This document shows positions 12,214 to 31,205 of a stretch of DNA of 38,566 nt, one piece after another; position 1 is the stretch's first letter, and every line of letters starts with the position of its first letter. A model generated the notes under the pieces. That model was not told the DNA's origin. It worked only from the letters and a program-made list of their open reading frames with translations, and did not search any database. This stretch comes from an uncultured Clostridia bacterium. GTDB taxonomy: Bacteria > Bacillota > Clostridia > TANB77 > CAG-508. The stretch spans positions 1 to 38,566 of the forward strand of contig CAMIVO010000014.1 of NCBI GenBank assembly GCA_946401865.1, written 5' to 3'. A program made the position numbers and the translations under genes.

Positions 12214-12450
12214 ATGATTGTACCAGATAAATATATTATGCCAAAGGATAGCATATTATATATGAGTACTATAATAATAAAAAAATTAAACAATAAAAAA
12301 ATAGATATTATAGATTTATGGCTTGAGGTCAAGAGAGAAAGCGGTATTTCATACACTAAGTTTATACAAAATTTATTGTATCTAAATATTATAGGAGTAA
12401 TAAATTATACAAAAGAGGGAGAGATTTATAATGAAAATATTGCAAGTTAA
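12214..12450 (+). CDS. ABC-3C middle component
   Basis: A 78-residue protein between the effector-like gene and the ATPase gene. Its opening MIVPDKYIMPKDSILYMSTI resembles ABC-3C middle components (MC6-like, from memory). The rest looks like a small winged-helix adaptor (DLWLEVKRESGISYTKFIQN, then LYLNIIGVINYT). These small proteins are thought to link the ATPase to the effector. I start at ATG 12214 behind AAGGAG (12201-12206), 4 nt after the previous stop. The 3' end overlaps the ATPase gene by 20 nt, implying coupled translation. Confidence 0.65.
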   Translation: MIVPDKYIMPKDSILYMSTIIIKKLNNKKIDIIDLWLEVKRESGISYTKFIQNLLYLNIIGVINYTKEGEIYNENIAS

Positions 12451-14083
12451 AATTTTTTCCCCAGAAGATAAAGAATTGAGAAAAGTTGATTTTAATGAGG
12501 ATGGACTATCAATCATTTATGGGGATGTTGAGAAGCCTAATAATGAAAATGAAACCTCAAACAGTATAGGGAAAACCGTATTATTAAGAATAATAAATGT
12601 TATTCTTGGAGGAAATAACAGTGGACAAGATACAATTCATGGTTTGAAAAATTATAAAATTAAAGCTTGTGTTAAATATAAAGGAAAAGAATATAATGTT
12701 GAATTAGAAATAGGAAATTCAAAAAATTATACTATAAATGGACAAAAGATGAATTTAACTAAGTATAAAGAATTCTTCTGTATAGATAGAAGTAGTTTTT
12801 CAAAACAAATAATGCTTGAAAAAAGAAAAGGGTTAATTTCAACTGTTTCTACTAATGCAACGAAAGATGACTATACTGTAGTATTAAATTTGTTGTATTT
12901 GAATAAAATACAAGATATTTTTAGAAAAATAAAAAAGAATCAAGATGAAATTGAAATAATAGGCAAATTTAAAAATAATTTTAAAGAAGATATTTCTACG
13001 TTGGAAAAAGAAGAGTTTAACTTAGAAATGAAGAAAAAGCAAGTTGATGATGAACTAAATGAATTAAATAAAAAAATACAAAACATAAAAATATCTGATA
13101 ATATTGAAGAAATAGTTCAAGACAGAGCAGACCTGGATCAAAAGGTTAAAAATATTGCAGAGAAAATAAAGCTTAATGATATTTCAATATCTAAATATAA
13201 AGAAACATTAGAAGATTCAGAAAAAAATGACATTTCGTTAAAGGAAGTAGAAGCAATATACGAAAAAGCTCAGATACAAATACCAGATATGATAAAAAGA
13301 AAATTAGTAGAGGTTGAAGACTTTTATAAAGGATTAATTGAAGACAAGAAGGACATATATCAAACCCAAATAAAAAATTTAAAGAATTCAAATGATACTA
13401 TGCAAAAAGAAATATCTGAACTTAAAATAAAATTGGATAATTTATCAGAGATAGTTTCAGAAAACGATTTGTTTAGGGAAGCAATCAAAATATATAATAA
13501 AAAAACAAATGAAAAAATGGAAATTGATTCAAAAATTTCAGAAATAAAGGGTAAATTAACGCAAATAAGTAATACTCAAAATTTAAAATCTGATATAGAT
13601 GTTTTATACACGCAACTATTCAAAGAACATGAAGATGCTACAACTATTATAAATAAATATAAAGAATTTGTTTATAATGTTGTCAATAGAATCTATGGAG
13701 AGGAAAAAAGAAATCCATATTTATCAATTAATATTTCAAATTCTGCAAGAAAATATAAAACTATGCCTGTAAAAATTGATTTATCTATTGATGGAGATGA
13801 TGGAGAAGGAATTAGTGCTGTTAAGTTTTTACTATTTGATCTGCTTATATTTAATTATAATAATGATATTGAGTTTTTGATTGAAGATTCTTCGTGTTTT
13901 GAAGGAATAGATAGAAGGCAAATAAAAAATATCCTTATAGAGATGGAAAAAATAAGCAATGATAAGAAAAAACAATTAATAGTTACTTTAAATAAATATC
14001 TAATTTCTAATGTAGATGATTTAGAAGAAAAAATAGTATTAAAATTAAATGAAAATAATACTTTATTAAATATTAACTTTTAG
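12431..14083 (+). CDS. ABC-3C ATPase (SMC/RecN-like, DUF2326-type)
   Basis: A 550-residue SMC-like ABC ATPase. The N-terminal half-domain contains a P-loop in the form SNSIGKT (N44-S-I-G-K48-T49) in the ETSNSIGKTVLLRIINVILG context. Two long coiled-coil arms (about 170-420) follow. The C-terminal half-domain has a signature-like DDGEGISAVKFLLFDLL and Walker-B-like IEFLIEDSS. This arrangement is the DUF2326 family of ABC-3C systems. It probably senses nucleic-acid structures and gates the effector. The start ATG 12431 lies behind GAGGGAGAG, inside the middle-component gene. A bidirectional terminator follows. Confidence 0.8.
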   Translation: MKILQVKIFSPEDKELRKVDFNEDGLSIIYGDVEKPNNENETSNSIGKTVLLRIINVILGGNNSGQDTIHGLKNYKIKACVKYKGKEYNVELEIGNSKNYTINGQKMNLTKYKEFFCIDRSSFSKQIMLEKRKGLISTVSTNATKDDYTVVLNLLYLNKIQDIFRKIKKNQDEIEIIGKFKNNFKEDISTLEKEEFNLEMKKKQVDDELNELNKKIQNIKISDNIEEIVQDRADLDQKVKNIAEKIKLNDISISKYKETLEDSEKNDISLKEVEAIYEKAQIQIPDMIKRKLVEVEDFYKGLIEDKKDIYQTQIKNLKNSNDTMQKEISELKIKLDNLSEIVSENDLFREAIKIYNKKTNEKMEIDSKISEIKGKLTQISNTQNLKSDIDVLYTQLFKEHEDATTIINKYKEFVYNVVNRIYGEEKRNPYLSINISNSARKYKTMPVKIDLSIDGDDGEGISAVKFLLFDLLIFNYNNDIEFLIEDSSCFEGIDRRQIKNILIEMEKISNDKKKQLIVTLNKYLISNVDDLEEKIVLKLNENNTLLNINF

Positions 14084-14127: not shown

Positions 14128-15270
14128 TTATTGTACTTTTTCAAAAATATCATTCATAGAATTTGCAACTTGTTTAAATTCTTCTTCAAAGAAGTAAGAA
14201 TAATAAGCATCAGTGACTTGTACACTTGAATGGCCGACTTTTCTACTGATAATTTGTGCTTGAAATCCTCTGGCAATCATATGTGAAATGCCTGTATGTC
14301 TAAGGCCGTGAAAAGTAATATATCTTAGATTATACTTTTTAAGAACCTTCTTTAGTATTTTACTTGGTGTATCAGGATGAATATTTCCACCAAAATCTGT
14401 TGTGAAAACTCTATTAGTTTTAACCCATTTAGAACCAAGTTTTAATTGTTTCTCAAGTTGTTCTTTCTTGTATTTTTTTAGAAGCTCAATAGTGTAAGGA
14501 TTAATAGAATTGATTCTATCACTATTAACTGATTTAGTTTCTTTTTCATAAATACGTCTATCAATATATTGAGTAGTTTTATTAATAACAACTTTGCCTG
14601 TTTCTAAATCAATATCGTCCCAGGTTAAACCTGTAAGTTCTCCACGTCTACAACATAGATCAAGAGCCAGATTAACAATTGCTTGATATTTTAGAGATTC
14701 ATTAGAAAGACATACAAGAAGTTTAACCATTTCTTCATCTGAATAATAACTAATATTAGCACTAGCTCTTTTTGGTTTTTCAATTCTTACATTTGGATTG
14801 TTTGAAATATAATCTCACTTTACAGCAACCTGCAACATATTATTTATCAATGCATAATAAGCTTGAATTGTAGTAGGGCTATATGGTTTTCCTTTCTTGC
14901 TTATATGTTTGTCTCTTAAATAGCTATAAAATTTATCAAGAATTTTAGCATTCAAATTTTTCAATTTTATATAACCAATATGTTCATTAATTATTTTTAC
15001 TCTATCACTATATGTTTTAAATGTCTTAGGGGATAAAATAGGTTTTTGATAAGCTAAATACTCACCACTAAACATTTCTAAATTAATGTTTTGCTTTTCT
15101 GGAAAGTTTCCAGTTTTAAATTCTATTTTTAATTTTGCTTCTCTAAGAAGTGCGTCTTTTTTACCTCCATAATAAGTTTCAAAATGTCTTTTCCTTGTTC
15201 CATCAGCTCTGTAAGTTATTGGAATTTCAATTTGATAAACTTGATTTCTTTTTATTTCTCGTACACTCAT
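14128..15270 (-). pseudogene. int: Tyrosine integrase (Tn916/phage type) interrupted by one in-frame TGA
   Basis: The two halves share one frame and together encode about 380 residues, normal for Tn916/phage-type integrases. The N-terminal half (from 15270) has an AP2-like arm-binding domain (ETYYGGKKDALLREA) and a core-binding SAM-like domain ending in NNMLQVAVK. A TGA at 14815-14817 then interrupts. The frame resumes with DYISNNPNVRIEKPKRA and a complete catalytic domain: R in CCRRGELTGL, H-x-L-R in FHGLRHTG, H in VGHSS and the nucleophile Y in TDAYYSYF. Relatives typically have Trp at the stop, so this looks like TGG to TGA. The 5' end overlaps the repressor gene by 4 nt. Probably inactive unless suppressed. 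Confidence 0.88.
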
Positions 15271-16148
15271 TTTTTATTTCCTTCCTTTTTCAATAATTTT
15301 TTATATTCAGAAGGAATAGATAAATTATTTTCTACACTATAAAATTCATGTAATTCATTTTTTAATACTTCTGTTATTTCAAATAAGCAGTAATTAATAC
15401 TTCTAGAAGTTTCTTCTTGATATGCTTCACCTATTGCTTGTATAAATATCATAACTTCTTCGAAATTTTTTACATCAGATGAATCTTTTTTATAATTTCT
15501 AATAAATTTTCTTAGCTTATCTATTTCAAGATTCATATCTTCATAACCATGATCCTGTAAAGTAGAAAAAATAGAACTACGGACAGCTTCTTTAAATTCT
15601 TCTGCTTTTTTTTCTAAAATAGATAGTATATGTTTTAACGAATTTTTATCATTTAATAGATCAGAAATATTTTTATCGAATTCATTAAGAGCAGTAAAGT
15701 ATTGCAAAATTTCAAGTGTTTTATTCAATGTTTGATATTCTTTAATTAATACAAGATATTCTTGAATATCAGACTTTTCAATCCAATCATTAAATACTAC
15801 AGGAGTTTCATCATCAGGTGCTAAATATTCAACTAATTCTCTAATATGTCTATTTCTATATTGAAGATTTATTATTTTATCTAGAGCTTTATCAGAAAGT
15901 TTTAACTCCTTGCCAATAGAAACAGACTCGGTTGTCCTATTATTACAATCTTCATCAAGTAAATATTCATAAGTAACACCATAGAAGTCTTTTAGCATTT
16001 TTAATTGGACTGTACTTGGAATTCTATCTAAGGAATCATTCTCATAATTTCTTACTGATTGAATGCCAATTCCAAGTTCATCAGCCAATGATTGTTGAGT
16101 CAATCCTTTTTCTTCTCTTAATTCTCTTAATTTCTGAGATAATTTCAT
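15267..16148 (-). CDS. XRE-family repressor of the element
   Basis: A 293-residue protein. Residues 1-60 are a textbook HTH_3/XRE domain (QKLRELREEKGLTQQSLADE then LGIGIQSVRNYENDSL). The remainder is a helical, acidic region without a recognised peptidase motif, probably for dimerisation or signal sensing. It sits between the integrase (downstream, 4-nt overlap ATGA) and the divergent small-gene/excisionase operon. That is the classic place of a cI-like repressor controlling excision and replication. Its promoter (16278-16306, minus) overlaps a CACATT/AATGTG inverted repeat, suggesting autoregulation. Confidence 0.85.
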   Translation of the reverse strand: MKLSQKLRELREEKGLTQQSLADELGIGIQSVRNYENDSLDRIPSTVQLKMLKDFYGVTYEYLLDEDCNNRTTESVSIGKELKLSDKALDKIINLQYRNRHIRELVEYLAPDDETPVVFNDWIEKSDIQEYLVLIKEYQTLNKTLEILQYFTALNEFDKNISDLLNDKNSLKHILSILEKKAEEFKEAVRSSIFSTLQDHGYEDMNLEIDKLRKFIRNYKKDSSDVKNFEEVMIFIQAIGEAYQEETSRSINYCLFEITEVLKNELHEFYSVENNLSIPSEYKKLLKKEGNKK

Positions 16149-16245
16149 ATCATACTCCTTCTATGTTTATTTGATATTGAAAACAGAAAAATATACATCT
16201 TTGTATGTATCTATTGACTAGAACATATATTTGTGTTTTAATATC

Positions 16246-16262
16246 ATTATCAACACGATAAT
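16246..16262. promoter_or_regulatory. Operator-like inverted repeat ATTATC-AACAC-GATAAT
   Basis: Perfect 6-bp arms (16246-16251 and 16257-16262) around 5 nt, in the divergent region between the repressor and the 57-aa gene. It is a candidate repressor binding site near a weak plus-strand promoter (TTGACT at 16214-16219). Confidence 0.5.
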
Positions 16263-16274
16263 GTTTATCACAAT

Positions 16275-16306
16275 CACATTATACATAAATGTGTTGCAAA
16301 TGTCAA
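16275..16306 (-). promoter_or_regulatory. Repressor-integrase promoter with overlapping operator
   Basis: On the minus strand, TTGACA (16301-16306), a 17-nt spacer and TATAAT (16278-16283) match the consensus perfectly. The inverted repeat CACATT-7nt-AATGTG (16275-16293) covers the -10 and part of the spacer. Confidence 0.8.
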
Positions 16307-16334
16307 GAAAAAAATAAAGATTGGAGGTGAAACG

Positions 16335-16508
16335 ATGGATAATGATGAAGAATTAGACAACATTGCAGCTGAATTAAGAAGAGAAAAGGCTAAGTTATGG
16401 AGAAAAAACAACAAGGAAAAGGTAAAAGAAATACACAAAAGATACTGGCGTAAAAAAGCTAAAGAAGAGCTAGAAAAAAGAAAAAATCAAAAGAAAGAAG
16501 GTGAATAA
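16335..16508 (+). CDS. Small highly charged protein (57 aa) of the element
   Basis: ATG at 16335 has an excellent site (TTGGAGGTGA) 5 nt upstream. The product is almost entirely helical and basic (AAELRREKAKLWRKNNKEKV, ending RKNQKKEGE). It is the first gene transcribed away from the repressor. Its stop (16506-16508) sits 1 nt before the excisionase start codon. Small charged ORFs in this position are common in integrative elements; function is unknown, possibly nucleic-acid binding. Confidence 0.7.
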   Translation: MDNDEELDNIAAELRREKAKLWRKNNKEKVKEIHKRYWRKKAKEELEKRKNQKKEGE

Positions 16509-16509
16509 T

Positions 16510-16704
16510 ATGGAAGAAGTATTTGACGTAAAAGAAGTAGCAGAGTATTTACATTGTAGTCAATCTACAATTAGAAAGCTACTAAAGAATAATCAAATTC
16601 CAAGTTTTAGAGTTGCATACAGAGTATTCTTCAAAAAAAGCCTTATTGATTTATGGATTAATAATCAATGTTTTAGAAATTGCGAGGTGATTAAGAATGA
16701 ATGA
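16510..16704 (+). CDS. xis: Excisionase-like helix-turn-helix protein (Xis)
   Basis: A 64-residue protein with the winged-helix/MerR-like fold of the excisionase family (HTH_17). The body is FDVKEVAEYLHCSQSTIRKL followed by an IPSFRVAYRVFFKKSLIDLW wing. Excisionases bend DNA at att arm sites and steer the integrase towards excision. I start at ATG 16510, with GAAGGTGA upstream overlapping the end of the 57-aa gene. It is the second gene of the operon opposed to the repressor. It overlaps the next small gene by 8 nt. Confidence 0.8.
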   Translation: MEEVFDVKEVAEYLHCSQSTIRKLLKNNQIPSFRVAYRVFFKKSLIDLWINNQCFRNCEVIKNE

Positions 16705-17656: not shown

Positions 17657-18100
17657 ATGATTATAACATATAAGAAAAATAAAATAGAAAAAAGTTTAAA
17701 TGAAAGAATAGGAGGAAATAAAATGTATTTTATAAAATTAGATAGAATAAATAACAAAAAATTTGAAGAAAGAAAAATCAGAAGAGAAAAGATTCAAAAA
17801 ATGTGGAAACAACCTAAAGGCAATAAATATATAGAGCTATATGAAGGATTATGCAGATATGCAATTAAGCATGGAAACAATATAAATTATAAAACAGAGA
17901 AATTCCTAAATGATTTTTACAGAGATAATAAAGAAACATTACAAGAAATGAGAATTTGCGAAATAATAGAAGGATTAAAAATGTTAAATCTTATAGAATT
18001 AATTAATATTGATGCTGATAGTATAAGCATAATTGACTATAAAGCCGTACTTCAAATTCAAGAAATGATAAAACGAAAACAACAAATTGCTGGTAGATAA
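17657..18100 (+). CDS. Hypothetical 147-aa (or 125-aa) protein
   Basis: Not recognised. It is a lysine-rich helical protein with KIRREKIQKMWKQPKGNKYI, EGLCRYAIKHGNNINYKTEK and a C-terminal ISIIDYKAVLQIQEMIKRKQ. Two in-frame starts each have a strong ribosome binding site: ATG 17657 behind AGAGGAGG, and ATG 17723 behind AGGAGG. Dual initiation or a moved start is possible. It lies just after the iteron region and ends in a terminator, so it may be a replication or maintenance accessory of the element. Confidence 0.6.
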   Translation: MIITYKKNKIEKSLNERIGGNKMYFIKLDRINNKKFEERKIRREKIQKMWKQPKGNKYIELYEGLCRYAIKHGNNINYKTEKFLNDFYRDNKETLQEMRICEIIEGLKMLNLIELINIDADSISIIDYKAVLQIQEMIKRKQQIAGR

Positions 18101-18115
18101 ACTACTGGCTTTTTT
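18089..18115 (+). terminator. Terminator overlapping the stop of the 147-aa gene
   Basis: GCTGGTAG (18089-18096) pairs with CTACTGGC (18102-18109), with two G-T pairs, over a loop that contains the stop codon. TTTTTT follows. Confidence 0.65.
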
Positions 18116-18183: not shown

Positions 18184-18212
18184 TTGTAAAATAATTCATT
18201 ATATGATATAAA
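18184..18212 (+). promoter_or_regulatory. Promoter of the HTH-helicase-Mod-Res operon
   Basis: TTGTAA (18184-18189), a 17-nt spacer and TATAAA (18207-18212) with a TG extension, 39 nt before the HTH gene. No other promoter is evident up to 25713. Confidence 0.6.
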
Positions 18213-18250
18213 ATAAGTAAATGAGTTTAATAATATGAATGAGGTGAAAA

Positions 18251-18472
18251 ATGAAAGAAAAAAAGTCACAATCGATAAAGGATGAAATTAAAGGATATAT
18301 CGTGATGAATGGATGGAGAATGGGTGATGTTGCGAGAAAAATAAGTAAACCTAATAGTAAATCTCCATTGCAAAATTTATCTAATAAACTAAACAACGAA
18401 ACTATTAGGTACGCTGAAGTTAAAGAAATTGCAGATGCATTAGGATATGAAATTAAATGGGAGAAAAAGTAG
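18251..18472 (+). CDS. Small HTH protein heading the helicase/R-M operon
   Basis: A 73-residue protein with an XRE-like helix-turn-helix (EIKGYIVMNGWRMGDVARKI then SPLQNLSNKLNNETIRYAEV). It is preceded by GAGGTG. Its stop (18470-18472) directly abuts the ATG of the helicase gene. The first position in the operon suggests a controller (C)-type regulator that keeps methylase and nuclease expression in balance, as in many restriction-modification systems. That role is inference. Confidence 0.7.
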   Translation: MKEKKSQSIKDEIKGYIVMNGWRMGDVARKISKPNSKSPLQNLSNKLNNETIRYAEVKEIADALGYEIKWEKK

Positions 18473-21343
18473 ATGATAGATTTAAGTAATGCAACAGCTA
18501 ATCAAAAAAGTGCAATTCAAATAACAGAAGGTCCATTATTAATTATTGCAGGGCCAGGAACAGGAAAAACTTATACATTAGTTCAAAGAACAATATATTT
18601 AATTGCAGAAAAAGGCATTAAGCCTGAAAATATAATGATTGCAACTTTTACAGAAAAAGCTGCCAAAGAAATAATAACAAGAATAACAAATGAATTAGAT
18701 AAGTTAGATATGTATGTAAATATTAATGAAATGTATATAGGAACGTTCCATTCAATATGTTTGAGAATTCTAAAAGAGAATATTGAATATTCGAATTTAA
18801 AAAAGAATTATAGAATGATAGATGAATTTGAACAGGAATATTTGATTTATCAAAATTTGAGTAAGTTTCAAAAAATAGAAGATTTCAATTTGTTGTTTCA
18901 AAATCAAATTAGTGGATGGAGATTATCACAATACATTGCAGATTATATAAATAATATTAATGAAGAGTTAGCTGATATAGAACAAATAGTATTGGATGAC
19001 AATCCTGAGATAGTAGCAATAGGAAAAATGATTCAATTGTATAATGATATCTTACAGAGATCAAATTATATAGACTTTACGCATATTCAAACAGAAACAT
19101 ATAATTTATTAATTGATAATCCAGAGGTATTAAAAAAGATAAACGACAAGATAAAATATGTGATGATAGATGAATACCAAGATACGAACTATGTGCAAGA
19201 AAGACTAACTTTTCTATTAGCAGGAAGTGAACAAAATATATGCGTTGTTGGTGATGATGACCAGGGATTATACAGATTCAGAGGGGCTACTATAAGGAAT
19301 ATAATTGAATTTCCTGATAAATTTGAAAAAGATAAATGTAGGAAGATTAAACTTGAAACAAATTATAGGTCTGAAAAAGGAATAATTGATTTCTATAATA
19401 AGTGGATGGGTACAACTGAAGGATCAAGTTTTAAATTTGATTGGGATAAATATAGATTTGATAAAAAGATTGAGCCAGGTAGAACAGATATTACTAATGT
19501 ACCTACAGTTATGAAAATAGCATCTCATGATGATGAGGATGAATGGCATAAAGAAATATTAAAATTTATTAAACATTTAAAAGAAAATGGAATAATAGAT
19601 AATTATAATCAAATAGCAATGTTATTCAATTCAGTGAGAGGAGAAAAAGTAATTGAATTAGCAAATTATCTTGAAGAAAACGGAATAAATGTATATTCTC
19701 CTAGATCAAATATGTTTTTTGAAAGAGAAGAAATCAAATATTTAATTGGAGCATTATTATTAGTATTTCCACAGTATCTTATAAAATTAAGAAACAGAGA
19801 TTTCAGATTGAAGAATGAAGGATTATTCTCATATTATGAAGATTGTATAAAAACGGTGGAAAAATACGTCTTTGAAAATGAGCAGTTGAAGATATTTATA
19901 AGAAATACAGGAATGAGTCATATGAATTTATTTTCAAATACTGATTATGCTTTTACAGGATTGTTATATAAGTTATTTGAGTTTGATCCATTCAGAGAGT
20001 ATTTAGAAATAGATTTGAATAATGGACTTATTGATCAAAGGCCAATTAGAAATATTTCAATATTGACACAAATGATTGCTAGATTTGACTATTTACAACA
20101 TATTGATGTATTTACACCAAAGAGAGTAATGAAAGATGTTGAAACATTCTTCAATACGTATCTTCGATTTTTAATTGATGGCGGTATGGGAGAATATGAA
20201 GATGAAACTGAATATGCACCAAGTGGATGTATAACATTTTCTACAATACATCAAGCAAAAGGAATGGAATTTCCTATTGTAATTGTTGATTCTTTAGGAA
20301 ACGTTCCAAGAGATAGAAACAATATAAGATTGAATGAGATAGAGAAGAAATATTATCATAGAAAATCATTTGAACCTAAAGAATATATAAAATATTATGA
20401 TTTTTGGAGATTGTACTATACTGCATTTTCAAGGGCACAAAATATATTAGCTTTAACTTGCAATGAAAAAGGTGGTGCAGGAAAACAACCAAGTGATTAC
20501 TTTAAATCTACATATGAAGATTTACCATATTATACAGATGAATCAATAGAGTTAGAAAAAATAAAGATAAGTGAAGTCAAAGAAGTAAATATAAAAAAAA
20601 CATATTCATTTACATCTCATATTTCTGTATATGAAAATTGTGCATTACAATACAAGTTTTTAAAGGAATTAAGTTTTTCACCAGTCAGAGTTGGTGCAAC
20701 AATATTTGGACAGTTAATTCATCAAACAATAGAAGATATACATAAAGCAGCAATAAAAAAGGAATATGATAAAATTAACAGAGATAATATAAAAATATGG
20801 TTTGATACTAATTATGAATCAATTTCAAAATCACAGCATTCATATTTAGGTAAGCCACAATTGGATGTAGCATTAGAACAAGTAATAAGATATGCAGAAA
20901 AGCAAAGTGATAATTGGAAAAAGGTTCAAGATGCAGAAGTTGAAATAGGTTTAGTAAAGCAAAATTATATTTTGAATGGAGTAGTTGATTTAATTGAAGG
21001 AAGCGGACAGACTGTTGAAATAGTTGATTTTAAATCAGAAAAGAAACCAGATATTTTTTCTGATCCTGAGAAGTTTGAAAAATATAAAAGACAATTACAA
21101 ATATATGCATATCTAATTGAAAAGAAAACAGGTAAAAAAGTTAGCAAAATGCATCTATATTATACAGGTGAAAAAAATGGAATTCCAACGATTTCATTTG
21201 ACAACAAAAAAGATGATATTCAAGAAACAATAAAAGAATTTGATAAAATAGTTAATAAAATTGAGTGTAAAGAATTTAAACAAAAATCTAAATCACAAAC
21301 AATATGTGACAACTGTGATTTAAGATTCTTTTGTAAAAAGTAG
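18473..21343 (+). CDS. UvrD/Rep-family helicase fused to Fe-S PD-(D/E)XK nuclease
   Basis: A 956-residue fusion. The superfamily 1A helicase part has all motifs: Q motif NATANQKSAIQ (6-16), Walker A GPGTGKT (27-33), Walker B IDEYQDT (232-238), motif III VVGDDDQGLYRFRGA, motif IV LETNYRS, motif V STIHQAKGMEFP and motif VI YYTAFSRAQ. The C-terminal part (about 710-956) is an AddB/Cas4-like nuclease with D839, D852 and K854 (GVVDLI ... VDFKSEKK) plus a His in QLIHQT. Cysteines C723, C945, C948 and C954 form the pattern of a 4Fe-4S cluster. It is expected to unwind and degrade DNA from ends. It is translated directly after the HTH gene and 10 nt before the Mod gene, an unusual partner for a type III-like R-M pair. 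Confidence 0.9.
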   Translation: MIDLSNATANQKSAIQITEGPLLIIAGPGTGKTYTLVQRTIYLIAEKGIKPENIMIATFTEKAAKEIITRITNELDKLDMYVNINEMYIGTFHSICLRILKENIEYSNLKKNYRMIDEFEQEYLIYQNLSKFQKIEDFNLLFQNQISGWRLSQYIADYINNINEELADIEQIVLDDNPEIVAIGKMIQLYNDILQRSNYIDFTHIQTETYNLLIDNPEVLKKINDKIKYVMIDEYQDTNYVQERLTFLLAGSEQNICVVGDDDQGLYRFRGATIRNIIEFPDKFEKDKCRKIKLETNYRSEKGIIDFYNKWMGTTEGSSFKFDWDKYRFDKKIEPGRTDITNVPTVMKIASHDDEDEWHKEILKFIKHLKENGIIDNYNQIAMLFNSVRGEKVIELANYLEENGINVYSPRSNMFFEREEIKYLIGALLLVFPQYLIKLRNRDFRLKNEGLFSYYEDCIKTVEKYVFENEQLKIFIRNTGMSHMNLFSNTDYAFTGLLYKLFEFDPFREYLEIDLNNGLIDQRPIRNISILTQMIARFDYLQHIDVFTPKRVMKDVETFFNTYLRFLIDGGMGEYEDETEYAPSGCITFSTIHQAKGMEFPIVIVDSLGNVPRDRNNIRLNEIEKKYYHRKSFEPKEYIKYYDFWRLYYTAFSRAQNILALTCNEKGGAGKQPSDYFKSTYEDLPYYTDESIELEKIKISEVKEVNIKKTYSFTSHISVYENCALQYKFLKELSFSPVRVGATIFGQLIHQTIEDIHKAAIKKEYDKINRDNIKIWFDTNYESISKSQHSYLGKPQLDVALEQVIRYAEKQSDNWKKVQDAEVEIGLVKQNYILNGVVDLIEGSGQTVEIVDFKSEKKPDIFSDPEKFEKYKRQLQIYAYLIEKKTGKKVSKMHLYYTGEKNGIPTISFDNKKDDIQETIKEFDKIVNKIECKEFKQKSKSQTICDNCDLRFFCKK

Positions 21344-21353
21344 GGGGTAAAAA

Positions 21354-23060
21354 ATGAGCGATTTTGAATTTGAAAGAGTAAATACAATAAAAGGATATCC
21401 AGAATTACATTGGACAGGCAAAAGACCATATAGAGGAACTGATTATTATCCTGCTCAATTAAAAGAAAAATATGGAGAAATGAAAGATGATTGGATAAAC
21501 AAAATATTCTGGGGTGATAATCTTCAAGTTATGAGTCATATGTTAAAAGAATATAGAGGGAAAATAGACTTAATATATATTGATCCACCATTCGATTCCA
21601 AAGCTGATTATAAGAAAACAATAAAACTTAGAGGACAAAAAATTCAAAATGATAATAATTCATTTGAGGAAAAACAATATGGAGATATATGGACAAATGA
21701 TGAATATTTACAATTTATGTATGAAAGATTAATTCTATTGAAAGAATTATTATCAGACAAAGGAAGCATTTATTTGCATTGTGATTGGCATAAATCACAT
21801 CATTTAAGAATGATATGCGATGAAGTATTTGGACCAAATAATTTTGTAAATGAAATAATTTGGTCATATAAAACAGCAGCAGGAGGAAAAGATGAGTTCA
21901 ATAAACAGCATGATAATATATTCTTGTATTCTAAGGGAGAAAAAAGAATATTTAATGAACAAAAAGAGAAATCGTACACAAAAGCTAAAGGAAGAAAAGC
22001 TGGAATTGTAAATTATGGGGCTGCGGATACAGAATTTTTTGAAGATGAGAATGGAGTATATAGATGGTCAAGCATGAGGGATGTTTGGGAAATTCCTTAT
22101 ATTAATTCTCAAGCTGTAGAAAGATTACAATATCCTACTCAAAAACCTGAAAAATTGATTGAAAGAATTATAGAAGCATCTTCTAATCCTGGAGATATAG
22201 TATTTGACTGCTTTATGGGAAGCGGAACAACTCAAGCGGTTGCAATGAAATTAGGCAGAAGATTTATAGGTGCAGATATAAATCTAGGGGCCATACAAAC
22301 AACAACCAAGAGGTTATTGAGTATAAAAAATGAGTTTGAAAAGGATATAGATAAATTTACAGGATTTGAAGTATATAATGTAAACAATTATGACTTCTTT
22401 AGAAATCCTGTTGAAGCAAAAGATTTATTGATTGATGCTTTAGAAATTCAAAAATTTGATGGAAGTAACGTATATGATGGAGAATTAGATGGAAGAATGG
22501 TAAAAATAATGCCTGTAAATAGAATTGCAACAAAATCTGATTTAGAAGAGCTTAAAGCTAATCTCCCATATCAAAAATTTGAAAAGAAAAAAAGTGAAAA
22601 TCCATTAGAGCCAGTTGAAAGATTAACAATAATTTGTATGGGTCATGAACCAGACCTTAAACCTTCATTAGAAAGAGATTTAATTAACTATAATATTGAT
22701 ATAGAGATAATTGATATTTTAAAAGATAAAGCAAATTTACAATTCAAACGTGATTCAGAAGCGGTCATTGAAATTGAAGAAAATAGATTAAATATAAAAG
22801 AATTTTATCCTATGAATCTTCTTCAAAAGCTAAGTATGCAAAAAGAATATGTTGAAGATTGGAAACAGATGGTAGAATCAGTAATGATAGATTGGAACTA
22901 TGATGGTGCTGTAATGGAACCTAAATTAGTAGATATTGCAGAAAAAAATGATTTAGTAAAGGGTGTATATGAAATTCCAAGTGATGCATCCAATATAAAA
23001 ATAAAAATAACAGATTTATTATCAGAAACATACGAAAAGGAGATTAAGATAAATGAGTAA
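21354..23060 (+). CDS. mod: Type III-like DNA N6-adenine/N4-cytosine methyltransferase (Mod)
   Basis: A 568-residue beta-class amino-methyltransferase. The catalytic motif IV DPPF (77-80, IYIDPPFDSKADY) precedes the AdoMet-binding motif I FMGSGTTQA (287-295), the order that defines the beta class. The target-recognition region lies between them (about 130-260, including YKTAAGGKDEFNKQHDNIFL). A C-terminal extension of about 200 residues (EIQKFDGSNVYDGELDG and onward) may contact Res. The ribosome binding site is AGGGGGT. The 3' end overlaps the Res gene by 8 nt. It would methylate the recognition sequence and specify it for the complex. Confidence 0.9.
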   Translation: MSDFEFERVNTIKGYPELHWTGKRPYRGTDYYPAQLKEKYGEMKDDWINKIFWGDNLQVMSHMLKEYRGKIDLIYIDPPFDSKADYKKTIKLRGQKIQNDNNSFEEKQYGDIWTNDEYLQFMYERLILLKELLSDKGSIYLHCDWHKSHHLRMICDEVFGPNNFVNEIIWSYKTAAGGKDEFNKQHDNIFLYSKGEKRIFNEQKEKSYTKAKGRKAGIVNYGAADTEFFEDENGVYRWSSMRDVWEIPYINSQAVERLQYPTQKPEKLIERIIEASSNPGDIVFDCFMGSGTTQAVAMKLGRRFIGADINLGAIQTTTKRLLSIKNEFEKDIDKFTGFEVYNVNNYDFFRNPVEAKDLLIDALEIQKFDGSNVYDGELDGRMVKIMPVNRIATKSDLEELKANLPYQKFEKKKSENPLEPVERLTIICMGHEPDLKPSLERDLINYNIDIEIIDILKDKANLQFKRDSEAVIEIEENRLNIKEFYPMNLLQKLSMQKEYVEDWKQMVESVMIDWNYDGAVMEPKLVDIAEKNDLVKGVYEIPSDASNIKIKITDLLSETYEKEIKINE

Positions 23061-25713
23061 TAATTTAAATTTACAAACATCTTTTTTTCAAGCGTTAAGA
23101 TTTTTTTATGAAATAAATAAAACAAAAATTAGAAGAAGCTATAAAGATTTAACAAGAAAATATTTAGATTACAATGACAGAAATTGTAATCCAGATGCTT
23201 TTCTTAGAAAACCACAATTTGAAGCTTTGGAAATGTATGTTTTTATAAAAGAATATTTAAATAATCAATCTGTTAGTGAAATTTTTAAAGATTGGATGGA
23301 GAAAAAAGGATGTTTCTCAGATACTAAACTAAGAATAAGAGAAAATAATCAAATAGACTGGTTTGAATATTATACAAAAGAATACAAAGAAGTTTATGAG
23401 ATGTTAATTAAATATAAAGAAGCGTATTCAAATTATATTTTTGCATTAACAATGGGATTAGGAAAAACAATTTTAATGGCAACATGTATTTTTTATGAAT
23501 TCTTATTAGCTAACAAATATCCAAATGATCCTAGGTTTTGCCATAACGCTTTAGTCTTTTCTCCTGATAAAACAGTTTTGCAATCATTAAAAGAAATACA
23601 GACATTTGACAAATCAAAGGTTATACCGAATGAATATGTAAGGATATTAGATAGCAATATTAAATTTCATTTTCTTGAAGAAACAGGAACAACACTTAAT
23701 ACATTAGATAATTCAGATTTTAATATTATTATTTCAAATAATCAAAAAATAATACTAAGAAAGAAACATACAGAGGATACACCTGTTCAAATGCTATTTA
23801 GCGATAGTGACAGAAAAAGTGAAATAGATGATATTTTCTCAGCTTTATATGGAGTAGAACAGCATATGGATGAGGGAGATCTTATATTTAATCAAAGATT
23901 TGAGAAAATAACAAGATTAAGCCAATTAGGAATATATGTTGATGAAGCACATCATTTGTTTGGAAAACAGCTAGATAAGGATCTATATGATAAAGGTAAA
24001 AGTAGTCTTAGAACAACAATTAATGTACTAGCAAATAGATTAAATCAAAAAGGAAGCAGGGTTGTAGCTTGTTATAACTATACTGGAACTCCATATGTAG
24101 GAAATACAATATTACCTGAAGTAGTGTATTCATATGGACTAAAAGAGTCTATTGCTAATGGATATTTAAAAGATGCAGAACCTCAAGCTTTTGACAATGT
24201 TAAAAATGAAACTTTTATTAGAAGAGTTGTTAAAGATTTCTGGGATACATATGGAGAAAGAAGATATGAAAAGATGCTGCCAAAGTTAGCGATTTATGGT
24301 AGTGAAATAAAAGAAGTAGAGGAAGAAATCGTACCAACATTGGAAAAAATATTGGAAGAAATGGATATTTCAAGGGATAAAATACTTATTAATGTTGGAG
24401 ATAGTAAATTAACAAAAGATAATGATATAAATGAGTTTAATAATCTAGATACTGAAAAAAGTAATAAGCAATTTATAATTTTAGTAGGTAAAGGAAAAGA
24501 AGGATGGAACTGTAGATCATTATTTGGAGTTGCTTTATATAGAAGCCCAGATTCTTCGATATTTGTTTTACAGGCTACAATGAGATGTTTAAGGAAAATA
24601 ACTAATGTTCAACAAACTGCTTCTGTATATTTATCAAAAGATAATTATGAAATTTTAGATAACGAACTTAATAAAAACTTTAAAATGTCTGTTAAAGATA
24701 TAAAGAATAAAGAAAATGATGGAAAAATTGAATATGAAGTAAGAGTAGTTCCACCACCAAGATTTATTAAAATTAAAAAAATAAATAATAAATATAATCT
24801 TGTAAAAAAATATAATGAACATGATTCTATTAATTTAGAATTGGATAAAATAGATTTAGAAAAGTATAAGGCAAGAATTATAAGAAAAGAGAGTTTAGCT
24901 GATTCAAGAGTGGCAAAAGTTAAAGAAATAGATATATCAGATGAAAATATACAATATAGCGAAATTATGCTGTGTAGTGAAATTTCTAGATATATTGGAG
25001 ATCTAAAATGTACTGAGATCAAAAAGATTTTAAGAAATGACATTAATGAGATAATCGAATTGGTTAGCAAATATAATCAAATACTATATGATTGGATCAT
25101 ACCTAAGATTGTAGATTTTGTATACGAATTAGAAAAATATACTACTACAGAAGACAAAGATGTTATTCTATTAAAAGAACCTGAAGAAGAGTATTATACA
25201 TTTAAAGCTAAGCCAGAGTTAGTTATTACTAACAATGATCTAGAAGTATTGGGAGTAAAGAATAAGAGTTTTCATGCAGATACATATTGCTTTGATTCAA
25301 AACCTGAAAAGGAATTATTCTTACAATATATTAAAAACAAAAAAATTAAAGAAATATATTTTACAGGAATGTTTACAAATGCTGCTCAAACAGATTTCTA
25401 TATACAATATATAGATCCCGATTCTAATACATTAAGAAAATATTATCCTGATTTTGTAGCAAAATTTGAAAATAACACATATGAAATCATAGAGGTAAAG
25501 GGAGATAATAAAATTGATGATGCAGTTGTTAATGCTAAGAAAGATGCAGCAATGGAGATTGCATCAGAAAGTGATATGAAATATACAATTTATAAATCAA
25601 GTGATATAATGGGAGATAATGTATTGGAAGAAGGTATAAAATATAGCCAAGAAGAAATTAACAGAGATGAATTGATGGTTGCTGAAGAAGATGAAGACTA
25701 TAAATTAGACTAA
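23053..25713 (+). CDS. res: Type III-like restriction subunit (Res): DEAD/DEAH helicase plus PD-(D/E)XK nuclease
   Basis: An 886-residue superfamily 2 translocase/nuclease. Walker A is MGLGKT (134-139) and the DEAH box is D297-E-A-H300 (YVDEAHHLFG). A helicase C domain contains GKGKEGWNCRSLFGVALYRS and ATMRCLRKI. The C-terminal endonuclease domain has D800 (YYPDFVAKF), E814 and K816 (IIEVKG), a PD-(D/E)XK site. The start lies 8 nt inside mod with AAAGGAG upstream. With Mod it should cut unmethylated phage or plasmid DNA after ATP-driven movement. The domain order is that of EcoP15I-type Res; overall length is slightly short. It is the last gene of the four-gene operon. Confidence 0.88.
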   Translation: MSNNLNLQTSFFQALRFFYEINKTKIRRSYKDLTRKYLDYNDRNCNPDAFLRKPQFEALEMYVFIKEYLNNQSVSEIFKDWMEKKGCFSDTKLRIRENNQIDWFEYYTKEYKEVYEMLIKYKEAYSNYIFALTMGLGKTILMATCIFYEFLLANKYPNDPRFCHNALVFSPDKTVLQSLKEIQTFDKSKVIPNEYVRILDSNIKFHFLEETGTTLNTLDNSDFNIIISNNQKIILRKKHTEDTPVQMLFSDSDRKSEIDDIFSALYGVEQHMDEGDLIFNQRFEKITRLSQLGIYVDEAHHLFGKQLDKDLYDKGKSSLRTTINVLANRLNQKGSRVVACYNYTGTPYVGNTILPEVVYSYGLKESIANGYLKDAEPQAFDNVKNETFIRRVVKDFWDTYGERRYEKMLPKLAIYGSEIKEVEEEIVPTLEKILEEMDISRDKILINVGDSKLTKDNDINEFNNLDTEKSNKQFIILVGKGKEGWNCRSLFGVALYRSPDSSIFVLQATMRCLRKITNVQQTASVYLSKDNYEILDNELNKNFKMSVKDIKNKENDGKIEYEVRVVPPPRFIKIKKINNKYNLVKKYNEHDSINLELDKIDLEKYKARIIRKESLADSRVAKVKEIDISDENIQYSEIMLCSEISRYIGDLKCTEIKKILRNDINEIIELVSKYNQILYDWIIPKIVDFVYELEKYTTTEDKDVILLKEPEEEYYTFKAKPELVITNNDLEVLGVKNKSFHADTYCFDSKPEKELFLQYIKNKKIKEIYFTGMFTNAAQTDFYIQYIDPDSNTLRKYYPDFVAKFENNTYEIIEVKGDNKIDDAVVNAKKDAAMEIASESDMKYTIYKSSDIMGDNVLEEGIKYSQEEINRDELMVAEEDEDYKLD

Positions 25714-25721
25714 AATATAAA

Positions 25722-25760
25722 TGTCCATGTGGTTCTGGAAAGAAGTATAAGGCATGTTGA
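25722..25760 (+). pseudogene. SEC-C motif remnant (left)
   Basis: Out of frame with the Res gene and after its stop, codons spell CPCGSGKKYKAC followed by TGA. This is a SEC-C zinc-binding motif in which the last conserved Cys codon is a stop. The upstream frame is closed six codons earlier, so it is the 3' tail of a gene that is no longer here. Confidence 0.6.
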
Positions 25761-28919: not shown

Positions 28920-30050
28920 ATGGGAATACTAGATATATTTGAACAGTTTAAAGATACAATATTTTTAAAAGAAGATTCATATTTACAAAAAAGAGTAAGT
29001 GAGTTAGAAAACTTATTAGCAAAAGATCCAAAAAATGAACGATTACAACAAGAGTTATATACAGCTAAAAAGGGATTAAAAGGTGAGAATGAAATAGCCT
29101 ATCAACTAAAAAAAGCCAATATTGGTATGTATGTACTACGTGATATAAATATAGAATATGAAGATTTAAAGGCACAAATAGATTTTGTAGTTATAACACC
29201 ATGGTGTTGTTATTTCATAGAATGTAAAAATCTGATGGGAAATATTACTTTAGATGAAAGAGGAAATTTTATAAGAGAGTATAAATATAAAGGACATTCT
29301 ATCAAAAAAGGAATGGAATCACCATTTAGACAAGTATGTGCCCAAAGGGAAGTTTATAAAAAAATTTGGATGAAAAAACAAGGCAAGCTTAAAACATTTT
29401 TATTTGAAAAAAGTTTTGAGGAAATGCACAGAGTATTGGTAGTTGCAGCAAATGGCGAAAACATTCTAGATACGAAAAAGGCTCCTAAAGATATAAAATA
29501 TGAAGTAATAAAAGCAGATGCACTTATTAGAAAATTAGAATATGATGGAAATCATAGTGATAAATCTTTATGGGAAAATAGAAAAGAAATGGAAAGTTGG
29601 GCAAATCACTTTTTGCTATTAAATGTTAATAATGAGAATAAAGATTTATTAAATGAAGAACCTAAAGATGTTGTATTAAATACAGAAATCATGGATTTGA
29701 AAAATATACAAATTAATAATAAGGCTGATTTTGAAAAAATTGTTAATACACTAAAATTTAGATATGCAAAAACATATTCAAATTATGCACCTCATGAATA
29801 TGTACTTGAAAAGGAAGAAGGAGAAAAATTAGAAGTTATAAGACAATTAAACAGATTTATACAAGAAAACTATGATGAAATAGAAATATTTGCTAAAAAG
29901 GAATACAAGGTTTTATTTGTAGGAAAGTATAAATATTGGGCTGTAAATAGTTGGAAGGTAGCTAATATTTTAAACAGAAATTGGGATTTCAAAAACGAAG
30001 ATGGAACAACAAATACCAGTATTACACAAAGTTATATGAGAAAATATTAG
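28920..30050 (+). CDS. NERD-domain protein, 376 aa
   Basis: After an N-terminal coiled coil (YLQKRVSELENLLAKDPKNE) comes a NERD domain: KGENEIAYQLKK, D88 in KAQIDFVVITP and E101-x-K103 in FIECKN. These are the Glu-Asp-ExK residues of the family. The C-terminal part (about 260-376) has no recognised motif and ends RNWDFKNEDGTTNTSITQSY. NERD proteins are predicted nucleases. RBS AAAGGATG precedes ATG 28920. It is the first gene after the tRNA-derived core, the usual place of element cargo. Confidence 0.8.
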   Translation: MGILDIFEQFKDTIFLKEDSYLQKRVSELENLLAKDPKNERLQQELYTAKKGLKGENEIAYQLKKANIGMYVLRDINIEYEDLKAQIDFVVITPWCCYFIECKNLMGNITLDERGNFIREYKYKGHSIKKGMESPFRQVCAQREVYKKIWMKKQGKLKTFLFEKSFEEMHRVLVVAANGENILDTKKAPKDIKYEVIKADALIRKLEYDGNHSDKSLWENRKEMESWANHFLLLNVNNENKDLLNEEPKDVVLNTEIMDLKNIQINNKADFEKIVNTLKFRYAKTYSNYAPHEYVLEKEEGEKLEVIRQLNRFIQENYDEIEIFAKKEYKVLFVGKYKYWAVNSWKVANILNRNWDFKNEDGTTNTSITQSYMRKY

Positions 30051-30134
30051 TCAAGATGATAATATATATCAGTCGCAAGAAATTTTAGATTTAACTCAAA
30101 AAACGTTAAAGAATTAAAAGCTTTATATGGCTAA
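30051..30134 (+). pseudogene. Coding remnant after the NERD gene
   Basis: One frame reads SQDDNIYQSQEILDLTQKTL then KN-stop. Changing frame near 30110 continues as VKELKALYG-stop. The combination looks like the frameshifted tail of a lost gene. No start or ribosome binding site is present. Confidence 0.3.
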
Positions 30135-30147
30135 AGTGTAAATTCAA

Positions 30148-30180
30148 TATTTTAAAGTGCAAAAATTGCACTTTAAAATA
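30148..30180. repeat. Palindrome copy 1 (AAAGTGCAA family)
   Basis: Perfect 15-bp arms TATTTTAAAGTGCAA and its complement around AAA, 32 nt upstream of the DUF5131-like gene. Related copies are at 31057 and 38220. It has no T tract, so it is more likely an operator or REP-like unit than a terminator. Confidence 0.7.
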
Positions 30181-30211
30181 AGACATAGTTAATTAAGGAA
30201 ATGATTATAAA

Positions 30212-31033
30212 ATGAATGATATATGGAATCCTTGGCATGGATGCAAAAAATATAGCGAAGGCTGTGAAAATTGCTATATGTATTTTTTGGATAGCCAAAG
30301 GGATAAAGATGGAAGTAAGATTTATAAAGTAAAAACAAATTTTAATTTACCACTTAAAAAAAGTAGAAATGGAGAGTACAAAATTCCAAGTGGAGCAACA
30401 ATCAGAGTTTGTATGACAAGCGATTTCTTTTTAGAAGAAGCAGATGAGTGGCGAAAAGAAGTATGGGAAATGATTAGAACTCGTTCAGATGTTACTTTTT
30501 GGCTTCAAACCAAAAGAGCCGAAAGAGTATTAAATAATCTTCCTGAGTGGTGGGGAGATGGATTAGAAAATGTAATAATGGTATTTACAGCAGAAAACCA
30601 AAAAAGGGCAGATGAGAGATTACCAATTCTACTAGATTTACCTTTTAAGCATAAAGGAATAATGTGTGCTCCAATGATTTCCAAAATCACAATAGATAAA
30701 TACTTAAAGACAGGAAACTTTGAAATTGTATTAGTTGATGGAGAAAATTATGAAGGAAATAGACCTTTATATTATGATTGGGTAAAAAAGCTTTATGATG
30801 AATGTATAAAATATAATGTAAAGTTTGATTTTTGTGGTACAGGAAATGTTTTTATAAAAGATGGAAAAACATATAACATACCAAAAGCTTATCAAAGAGT
30901 TATGGCTTTAAAATCAGAATTGCAAAAGCCTTTAATATATAAAGAAACTGATATAAAAATTCAGCCAAGATGTAAAACTTGTAAAAGAAGAAATAGCTGT
31001 AATGGTTGCAGATGGTGTGGAAAATGTAATTAG
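30212..31033 (+). CDS. Phage Gp37/Gp68-like protein (DUF5131)
   Basis: A 273-residue protein with the family opening WNPWHGCKKYSEGCENCYM (Cys cluster C-x7-C-x2-C), then CMTSDFFLEEADEWR, WLQTKRAERVLNNLPEWW and GENYEGNRPLYYDWVKKLYD. A C-terminal Cys cluster follows (CKTCKRRNSCNGCRWCGKC). The Cys-x-Cys pattern and TIM-barrel-like predicted strands recall radical SAM-type folds, and the family often neighbours three-Cys-motif (TcmP) genes. No TcmP gene is seen here. Biochemical function unknown. The gene sits exactly between two copies of the AAAGTGCAA palindrome. Confidence 0.85.
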   Translation: MNDIWNPWHGCKKYSEGCENCYMYFLDSQRDKDGSKIYKVKTNFNLPLKKSRNGEYKIPSGATIRVCMTSDFFLEEADEWRKEVWEMIRTRSDVTFWLQTKRAERVLNNLPEWWGDGLENVIMVFTAENQKRADERLPILLDLPFKHKGIMCAPMISKITIDKYLKTGNFEIVLVDGENYEGNRPLYYDWVKKLYDECIKYNVKFDFCGTGNVFIKDGKTYNIPKAYQRVMALKSELQKPLIYKETDIKIQPRCKTCKRRNSCNGCRWCGKCN

Positions 31034-31088: not shown

Positions 31089-31205
31089 TAAAATAGGGTG
31101 GAAGAAGTAATAGACAAAGAATGGAGAAAAACAAAGTCCTGGAAAACAGGATGGGAATATATAATTGAAAAATAATAAATCAGAAAAAGAATTGTAATAT
31201 ATAAC

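What the first reader, a model, noticed from the sequence alone, without database searches (positions are those of the whole stretch)
18184..25713. Four-gene operon: HTH, UvrD helicase/Fe-S nuclease, type III-like Mod and Res
Seen: four tightly packed genes (0-10 nt gaps or 8-nt overlap) behind one promoter. Known: Mod (DPPF then FMGSGTT, beta class) plus Res (SF2 helicase with PD-(D/E)XK) is type III R-M. Inference: the obligatory-looking addition of a complete UvrD helicase fused to an AddB/Cas4-like 4Fe-4S nuclease, translated between a C-like regulator and Mod, would give two motors and two nucleases. A plausible model is Mod/Res cutting followed by end-directed degradation, or degradation of DNA ends that type III enzymes leave. 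I know of no named system with exactly this composition.
Basis: partly seen in the sequence, partly recalled or inferred. Interest (0 to 1): 0.8.

Follow-up and report, generated by a model that had tools for sequence, protein, structure and literature searches.

The report
Restriction system with built-in DNA shredder
Three neighbouring bacterial genes, found together in distantly related bacteria, join a DNA-marking and DNA-cutting pair of the type III kind to a helicase-nuclease that would likely shred foreign DNA after the first cut; the gene grouping is already in print, but no test of it was found in the papers searched.

Summary
Window 18251-25713 (+) holds a small HTH-type gene, a 956-aa UvrD helicase fused to a Cas4/AddB-like nuclease, a beta-class type III-like Mod and an SF2-helicase/PD-(D/E)XK Res, tightly packed. 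The conserved unit is the last three genes; the HTH is local. From Res, 69 of 72 informative loci from many phyla carry UvrD upstream of Mod on the same strand. From UvrD, 14 of 15 viral contigs (13 of 14 without a duplicate) carry Mod and Res; in two bacterial orders the tie is looser (7 of 15 UvrD-positive genomes). Catalytic residues of both nucleases are invariant. UvrD, Res and the Mod core descend largely together, while a 93-residue recognition segment of Mod is exchanged between lineages. UvrD relatives also pair with clearly different type III Mod/Res families. Best reading: a type III variant with a dedicated DNA-end-degrading helicase-nuclease; that step is inferred. The composition is not new: Hudaiberdiev et al. 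2017 reported UvrD-Cas4 beside type III Mod/Res and predicted a defence role. Added here: near-obligate linkage seen from Res, recognition-segment exchange, partners from several type III families, and a Res without a PADLOC 2.0.0 model.

The parts
18089..18109 (+). terminator-like hairpin ending the upstream gene, likely upstream limit of the transcription unit
   Evidence: 2 found against 1.6 expected by chance, so a weak signal
18251..18472 (+). 73-aa predicted HTH-type small protein; local, not part of the conserved unit
   Evidence: no Pfam match, weak phrog_3 repressor match 7e-4; outside the DNA block shared with relatives
18473..21343 (+). UvrD-like SF1 helicase fused to Cas4/AddB-like PD-(D/E)XK nuclease, 956 aa; Walker A K32, DEYQD 233-237
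20615..21337 (+). nuclease domain; H750, D839, D852, K854 and four Cys C723, C945, C948, C954 (predicted 4Fe-4S ligands)
   Evidence: (four catalytic residues 64 of 64; each Cys 63 or 64 of 64)
21354..23060 (+). Mod, beta-class DNA aminomethyltransferase, 568 aa; DPPF 77-80, FMGSGTT 287-293
21849..22127 (+). target-recognition segment of Mod (residues 166-258), exchanged between lineages
   Evidence: entropy profile; swaps; DNA-level break 21955-22130 against L003
22344..23057 (+). conserved C-terminal part of Mod (331-568), candidate contact surface for Res/UvrD (inference)
23053..25713 (+). Res, SF2 helicase with C-terminal TnsA-like PD-(D/E)XK nuclease, 886 aa; Walker A 135-139, DEAH 297-300
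25387..25593 (+). TnsA-like nuclease domain of Res; D800, E814, K816
   Evidence: invariant in 64 of 64

Best explanation
A type III-like Mod/Res pair likely marks self DNA and cuts unmethylated foreign DNA, and the UvrD-Cas4-like helicase-nuclease encoded with it would then enter at the cut ends and degrade the DNA. Shown here: the three genes recur as one unit with fixed order; both ATPase motors and both nuclease centres keep their catalytic residues; the variable part of Mod is one exchangeable segment; UvrD relatives are also encoded beside other type III families. Inferred: Mod methylates adenine N6 at an asymmetric site read by that segment; Mod-Res cleaves unmethylated DNA in an ATP-dependent way; the UvrD-nuclease unwinds and cuts from the ends (as RecBCD/AddAB/AdnAB do), turning one or a few cuts into loss of the whole molecule, and would stay useful when a phage blocks the host's own AddAB. 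The system could switch target sequence by swapping the Mod segment without touching the two nucleases.
For: Res-first: 68 of 80 loci have UvrD, then Mod, then Res on one strand; of the other 12, eight are contig ends (at most 1,318 bases upstream of Mod, or no Mod held), L070 has UvrD on the same contig just beyond the fetched stretch (exact 71-base overlap), L067 has a UvrD fragment on another contig, L072 and L076 have none in their genomes at E 1e-60. Plasmids: 14 of 14 records whose Res match covers at least 80% also hold UvrD on the same strand, 1.8-2.1 kb from Res in 13 and 3.7 kb in Spirosoma (the Mod itself was seen only in the one opened). UvrD-first: 14 of 15 viral contigs with a full UvrD have Mod and Res (L105 and L106 are identical). 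Mod-Res spacing within -20..+20 nt in 71 of 79, exactly -8 in 19. Distance correlation UvrD-Res 0.953, UvrD-Mod core 0.873, recognition segment 0.08-0.16 with everything; Res and UvrD trees share 32 of 56 splits, shuffled maximum 2; Res and segment 1, shuffled maximum 1. 45 of 48 close pairs have unlike segments; 17 pairs share a segment, 14 of them with UvrD identity of 0.73 or less. Portability: a 47%-identical full-length UvrD in Priestia and relatives in Peribacillus and G1282 sit with Mods matching other PADLOC MTase_III models and helicases matching REase_III models, although the Priestia Res shows no credible similarity to this Res. A UvrD relative lies beside sbcD/sbcC-like genes in Fusobacterium and another about 3 kb from a similar pair in Lachnospirales. 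The host also has AddA and AddB over NCBIfam's cut-offs, so this is an addition, not a substitute.
Against: No experiment on any member was found in the searches made. Co-inheritance does not show that the proteins act together or in that order, and 8 of 40 well-supported Res splits conflict with UvrD's. In the analogous Eco86II system the third (SF2, non-nuclease) gene was not required for methylation and was absent from a cleaving preparation (PMC8259958), so third genes can be dispensable for cutting. UvrD without Mod/Res exists: 4 of 8 UvrD-positive Lachnospirales genomes (two near-copies; two more are contig ends), 1 of 7 Bacillales, Annamia (where only a short Mod-like piece lies 3 kb on), L111. 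The SbcCD-like neighbours are seen in Fusobacterium and in L179/L180 only, not in L178, L181 or L111. Two Res loci lack UvrD in their genomes. The Res model is weak (pLDDT 66, pTM 0.47).
Confidence: 0.5

Rival explanations
1. Integral three-subunit machine: the UvrD-nuclease is a subunit of the restriction complex itself, giving processive translocation and unwinding that type III Res proteins lack, so that cleavage needs all three proteins.
For: Near-obligate, fixed-order linkage seen from Res and strong co-inheritance; a highly conserved Mod C-terminal part could be a docking surface. PMC7430649 (Discussion read) proposed a similar idea for the Fe-S helicase-nuclease Bad, which lies beside a type III-related Mod in Geobacillus.
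Against: Relatives of the same UvrD lie beside Res families with no credible similarity to this one, which is easier for an enzyme acting on DNA ends than for a fitted subunit. Eco86II precedent.
Confidence: 0.25
2. Damage control: the UvrD-nuclease clears or repairs self-inflicted breaks and stalled type III complexes, limiting autoimmunity, rather than attacking phage DNA.
For: Relatives near SbcCD-like genes suggest a repair origin; Hudaiberdiev 2017 notes possible overlap with RecB repair roles.
Against: The host already has AddA and AddB; the nuclease centre is invariant, and the unit also rides on phages, plasmids and, in the window, probably an integrated element.
Confidence: 0.12
3. 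Separate neighbour: the UvrD-nuclease is an independent defence gene that merely travels with type III systems.
For: Stand-alone copies exist and the helicase part matches GajB-type and RecB-type models used elsewhere.
Against: 69 of 72 linkage with fixed order and mostly short gaps in many phyla, and a joint tree signal.
Confidence: 0.08

Closest known systems
UvrD-Cas4 fusion next to type III Mod/Res (Hudaiberdiev et al. 2017, PMC5704561, section 8 read whole)
   Same: Same fusion architecture, same neighbours, HTH genes sometimes present; predicted defence role.
   Different: That section reports neighbourhoods and calls the fusion ancillary; it gives no linkage count from the Res side, no recognition-segment analysis and no test. 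Its second context (Dcm/Vsr) was not noticed among the UvrD loci inspected here, though I did not search for it.
Type III restriction-modification (EcoP15I, 4zcf)
   Different: A third gene, and a Res without a significant PADLOC or PDB sequence match.
Type III systems with an extra 5' helicase-like ATPase (Eco86II group, Murray et al. 2021, PMC8259958, passages and section 17 read)
   Same: Third ATPase gene immediately 5' of mod, conserved in many genomes.
   Different: There SF2, without nuclease motif, with m4C Mods; here SF1 UvrD with a nuclease.
Bad helicase-nuclease beside a type III-related Mod (PMC7430649, passages and Discussion read)
   Same: Fe-S helicase-nuclease coupled to a type III-like methyltransferase gene.
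   Different: DNA2-like 5'-3' motor with the nuclease at the N-terminus, only a Mod neighbour reported.
AdnAB / AddAB / RecBCD
   Same: UvrD-type motor plus RecB-family nuclease; PDB hits of the helicase part to AddA, mycobacterial UvrD/REP helicase-nuclease chains and RecB (AdnB is my recalled name for 6ppr-type entries).
   Different: Single polypeptide tied to restriction genes; the host has its own AddA and AddB.

Membership tests
Type III restriction-modification | Mod is a beta-class aminomethyltransferase with a central recognition segment | tested here: met
Type III restriction-modification | Res has an SF2 helicase core and a C-terminal PD-(D/E)XK nuclease | tested here: met
   PF04851 and PF08722 just above cut-off; motifs invariant in alignment A1 and in at least 63 of 64 loci; EcoP15I Res is Foldseek rank 4, E 5.6e-7, on a weak model
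Type III restriction-modification | two-gene mod-res operon sufficient for restriction | tested here: inconclusive
   mod-res adjacency met (71 of 79 within 20 nt), but a third gene is nearly always present; sufficiency needs experiment
Type III restriction-modification | ATP-dependent cleavage at two inverted asymmetric sites, one-strand methylation | not testable with these tools
   needs biochemistry and long-read methylome
UvrD-Cas4 fusion family (2017) | UvrD SF1 helicase with C-terminal pfam12705 Cas4-like nuclease | tested here: met
   (PF00580, PF13361, PF12705, PF01930)
UvrD-Cas4 fusion family (2017) | neighbourhood with type III Mod and Res | tested here: met
   paper section read
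4Fe-4S AddB/Cas4-type nuclease | four conserved cysteines framing the nuclease domain | tested here: met
   C723, C945, C948, C954, each in 63 or 64 of 64; the cluster itself is not testable here
Gabija (GajA + GajB UvrD) | GajA OLD-family nuclease partner | tested here: not met
   GajB models match only the shared helicase region; no OLD-like domain in the four operon proteins
AddAB / AdnAB / RecBCD | obligate second helicase-nuclease subunit | tested here: inconclusive
   no AddB/AddA-like gene in the operon; a partner in trans cannot be excluded

The most novel reading that the evidence does not exclude
Type III restriction has a recurrent three-component form in which a UvrD-Cas4 helicase-nuclease is an interchangeable shredding engine, used by several unrelated Mod/Res families: Mod chooses the target through a swappable segment, Res acts as the ATP-driven switch that makes the first cut, and the UvrD engine is handed the ends and destroys the molecule independently of the host's AddAB/RecBCD.
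Probability: 0.3. Interest if true: 0.8.

Novelty: new member of a known kind. Interest (0 to 1): 0.5.

Why it matters
Type III enzymes are usually described as Mod and Res alone, and published work leaves open what extra helicase genes beside them do (PMC8259958, PMC7430649). This family gives a clear, widely spread test case: a dedicated helicase-nuclease kept beside Mod/Res in many phyla, on chromosomes, plasmids and phages. If it degrades cut DNA, restriction would not depend on the host's RecBCD/AddAB, which many phages block (recalled). The map of the exchangeable recognition segment also predicts where specificity could be swapped. PADLOC 2.0.0 has no model that matches the Res, so searches with that library would see only part of the system.

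Tried and rejected
Considered and set aside: (1) that the HTH gene belongs to the system: rejected, it lies outside the DNA block shared with relatives, and the upstream ORFs of relatives are mutually unrelated (mean column identity 8%; 38 scanned, the window's ORF plus 37 of 62 candidate ORFs from 60 loci, 14 of which had no candidate; HTH_26 in 9, HTH_3 in 6, HTH_17 in 3, possibly overlapping). (2) That UvrD replaces a missing AddAB: rejected, AddA and AddB are over NCBIfam's cut-offs in the genome. (3) A SEC-C zinc motif as a Res tail: only an out-of-frame remnant after the stop; none in 64 locus Res nor 120 database Res proteins. (4) Gabija: no GajA. (5) One conserved extra gene between UvrD and Mod: present only in subsets and of several unrelated kinds.

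Led nowhere: PDB sequence search with Res (no hit; profile, two chance hits at E 0.65 and 0.73); PDB search with the isolated nuclease domain (nothing significant, Cas4/Cas1 fusion at 0.3); the 50 rows shown by VIA-align for the Res model are general SF2 helicases and one type I HsdR, no type III Res, which says little because the model is weak. Residues 351-568 of Mod were barely tested by the fold search.

Rows dropped and limits: one search used 64 rows (63 loci plus the window) with three long enough proteins, of which L001 (Mod), L004 (Res), L016 and L074 (UvrD) are partial; (distances) and 107 dropped L001 (63 rows); one search dropped L001, L004, L016, L057, L074 (59 rows); one search left out 8 of the 64 and added 23 others (79 rows). 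The genome-contig scan kept the best 80 of 371 relatives, so linkage in the other 291 was not seen. Of the two Priestia plasmid hits one was opened. The SH-aLRT tree was the quick method with long branches flagged for L125, L088, L095 and L115, so their places are unsure.
Full report
What is there. Four + strand ORFs are confirmed at 18251-18472, 18473-21343, 21354-23060 and 23053-25713 with gaps of 0 and 10 nt and an overlap of 8 nt. Gene 2 is a UvrD-type SF1 helicase with a C-terminal PDDEXK_1/Cas4-like nuclease; gene 3 a DNA aminomethyltransferase of the beta order (DPPF before FMGSGTT); gene 4 an SF2 helicase (ResIII) with a TnsA-like endonuclease domain, both domains only just above Pfam's cut-off. 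PADLOC models recognise the helicase-nuclease in general terms (best RTasHel and GajB, then Cas4), the Mod best as MTase_III, and the Res not at all at E 0.001. No NCBIfam model reaches its cut-off for these four proteins. A terminator-like hairpin at 18089-18109 ends the upstream gene; promoter-like sites are at chance level.

The conserved unit is three genes. Comparing the window's DNA with close relatives, similarity over the operon begins at 18446-18523 and ends at 25628-25703 in L002, L003 and L004, that is, close to the start of UvrD and the end of Res (L096 from the same-family genome G354 is the same stretch as L003). L001 begins at a contig end inside the operon and runs on to 25713. 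Only two further matches over 150 bases were found in these five loci: L001 at 31182-31517 and L002 at 35087-35854. The HTH gene is outside the block apart from its last 19-27 bases. Upstream small ORFs of relatives are unrelated to it, although HTH domains recur among them.

How constant the trio is. A scan of one genome per species with the Res alignment found 371 relatives and kept the best 80. In 68 of 80, UvrD, Mod and Res follow on one strand; 50 of these have a UvrD-Mod gap of at most 60 nt, the other 18 a larger one, made by an extra gene, a second Mod, a split Mod or inserted DNA. Of the 12 others, eight are contig ends. L070 has UvrD on the same contig, just upstream of the fetched stretch, separated from Mod by inserted genes. 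L067 has a UvrD fragment on another contig. L072 and L076, both metagenome-assembled, have none at E 1e-60. So 69 of 72 informative loci are linked. Hosts include Bacillota, Actinomycetota, Pseudomonadota, Bacteroidota, Cyanobacteriota, Spirochaetota, Chloroflexota, Verrucomicrobiota, Fibrobacterota and Poribacteria; the UvrD tree groups members of different phyla, so transfer between them is likely, with the caution that many loci come from metagenome bins. In plasmids, 14 of 14 records with a Res match over at least 80% of its length hold UvrD on the same strand; 11 further records, ten of them Enterococcus, hold only partial Res matches; of these L091 was opened and has an insertion-sequence transposase just upstream, and L093 (Ideonella, 29% identity) is a different type III-like locus without UvrD, in Res-Mod order with an AAA ATPase and a DUF4276 gene.

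The reverse test. UvrD-first, 14 of 15 viral contigs with a full UvrD (over 1000 bits) have Mod and Res; two of the 14 are identical. The exception L111 belongs to a phage-like contig with a WYL-like regulator gene. In whole genomes UvrD (E at most 1e-90, or 1e-100) occurs in 2 of 385 of the window's order (both carry the trio), 2 of 398 of its phylum sample (the window's genome and G683, whose UvrD is distant), 8 of 392 Lachnospirales and 7 of 397 Bacillales; the last two order names are mine, from the centre genomes' record titles. Of the 8, two have this Mod-Res, four have neither within the fetched stretch (two are near-copies), two are contig ends; of the 7, five have this Mod-Res, one another type III pair, one neither. 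So 7 of these 15 have this Mod-Res. The Mod/Res-less Lachnospirales copies form their own long-branched clade with L111, with DUF1351, exonuclease (RNase_T) and WYL neighbours where tested (L179). So Res nearly always has UvrD; UvrD has Res in many but not all cases. This agrees with the 2017 report, which also mentions stand-alone copies.

Partners vary. In a tree of 79 UvrD proteins, Priestia (L086), Peribacillus (L090, C-terminal part) and G1282 (L195) form a separate clade. Their neighbours are Mods matching other PADLOC MTase_III models and helicases matching REase_III models. The Priestia UvrD is 47% identical to the window's over its full length, whereas its Res shows no credible similarity to this Res (hhalign probability 0.4%, E 0.16; best BLASTP piece E 0.025). 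The Peribacillus Res shows only weak helicase-region similarity (hhalign probability 52%; BLASTP E 0.002). More distant UvrD-nucleases sit with further type III pairs in L115 and L125, and a piece matching the Priestia Res lies beside UvrD in L095. The engine is therefore portable between type III families.

Specificity is one exchangeable segment. Column entropy across 64 Mods is highest at residues 166-258, between the motif IV/VIII half and the motif I half; the C-terminal 240 residues are well conserved. Distances of UvrD and Res correlate at 0.953, UvrD and Mod core at 0.873, Res and Mod core at 0.902, but the segment correlates at only 0.08-0.16 with anything. Trees agree: Res and UvrD share 32 of 56 splits (shuffled maximum 2), Mod core shares 21 with UvrD and 19 with Res (shuffled maxima 3 and 2), the segment shares 1-2 with any (shuffled maxima 1-2). 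Against a perfect unit, 8 of 40 well-supported Res splits conflict with UvrD, and 8 and 10 of 27 Mod-core splits conflict with UvrD and Res. 45 of 48 close pairs (UvrD identity 0.8 or more) have unlike segments (below 0.45), and 17 pairs share a segment (0.8 or more), 14 of them with UvrD identity of 0.73 or less. Between the window and L003 the DNA alignment breaks at 21955-22130, inside the segment. That the segment reads the target site is inferred from its place in beta-class enzymes. L028 holds two complete Mod genes in tandem and L048 a broken one before a complete one.

Mechanism. I commit to methylation-sensitive cutting by Mod-Res followed by degradation from the ends by the UvrD-nuclease. 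The first half follows from established type III knowledge; the second from the RecB/AddB/AdnB kind of architecture, from portability across type III families that would share cut ends but not Res sequence, and from relatives near SbcCD-like genes in Fusobacterium and in L179/L180, though not in L178, L181 or L111. The whole second half is inference; 0.5. The main rival is an integral three-subunit machine (0.25). The host's own AddA and AddB are present.

Known or new. The 2017 Cas4 phylogenomics paper states that UvrD-Cas4 fusions most commonly neighbour type III Mod and Res, sometimes with HTH genes, and predicts a defence role (section 8 read whole). Searches of the open-access library found the phrase UvrD-Cas4 only there, and no functional test. 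These were listings, apart from passages of PMC12839542, PMC7641849 and PMC11142916 and the sections and passages named above. Most subscription papers are not covered. Hence: a new member of a known but, as far as I could see, uncharacterised kind.

Setting. A phage-type integrase, a repressor and an excisionase-like gene lie about 2-4 kb upstream, so the operon is likely cargo of an integrated element; other defence-like genes flank it. The element's ends were not sought.

Noticed in passing
window 14131-16704: Phage-type integrase (-), HTH repressor (-) and excisionase-like gene (+): likely core of an integrated mobile element carrying the operon.
   Followed up: partly
window 11241-14083: Gene pair with a weak ABC-3C CTD10 match (0.007, below cut-off) and a DUF2326 protein (6e-25), possibly another defence module.
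   Followed up: no
window 28920-31033: NERD-nuclease protein followed by a DUF5131 protein.
   Followed up: no
window 25719-25757: Out-of-frame SEC-C-like peptide (KCPCGSGKKYKAC then stop) right after the Res stop; no SEC-C tail in 64 locus Res or 120 database Res proteins.
   Followed up: partly
L008, L018, L020, L034, L041, L177 between UvrD and Mod; phage PV036426 (L092) has a gene in the same place: Extra ~250-290-aa gene between UvrD and Mod (no Pfam match in the two tested, L018 and L092); other kinds elsewhere: Bro-N in L027 (UvrD-Mod gap), DUF3800 in L067 and PLD-like in L073 (Mod-Res gaps).
   Followed up: partly
L028, L048, L053: Two complete tandem Mods in L028, a broken plus a complete Mod in L048; L053 has one Mod split over two overlapping frames.
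   Followed up: no
L179 (and near-copy L180), L178, L181, L111: A UvrD-nuclease clade without Mod/Res in Lachnospirales and a phage-like contig; in L179 with DUF1351, an RNase_T exonuclease and a WYL regulator, look-alikes by eye in the others.
   Followed up: partly
L070 4477-6986 and 9231-9884: PIN-toxin-like genes and a small transposase-like gene (named by eye; the latter has no Pfam match) separating UvrD, Mod and Res.
   Followed up: no
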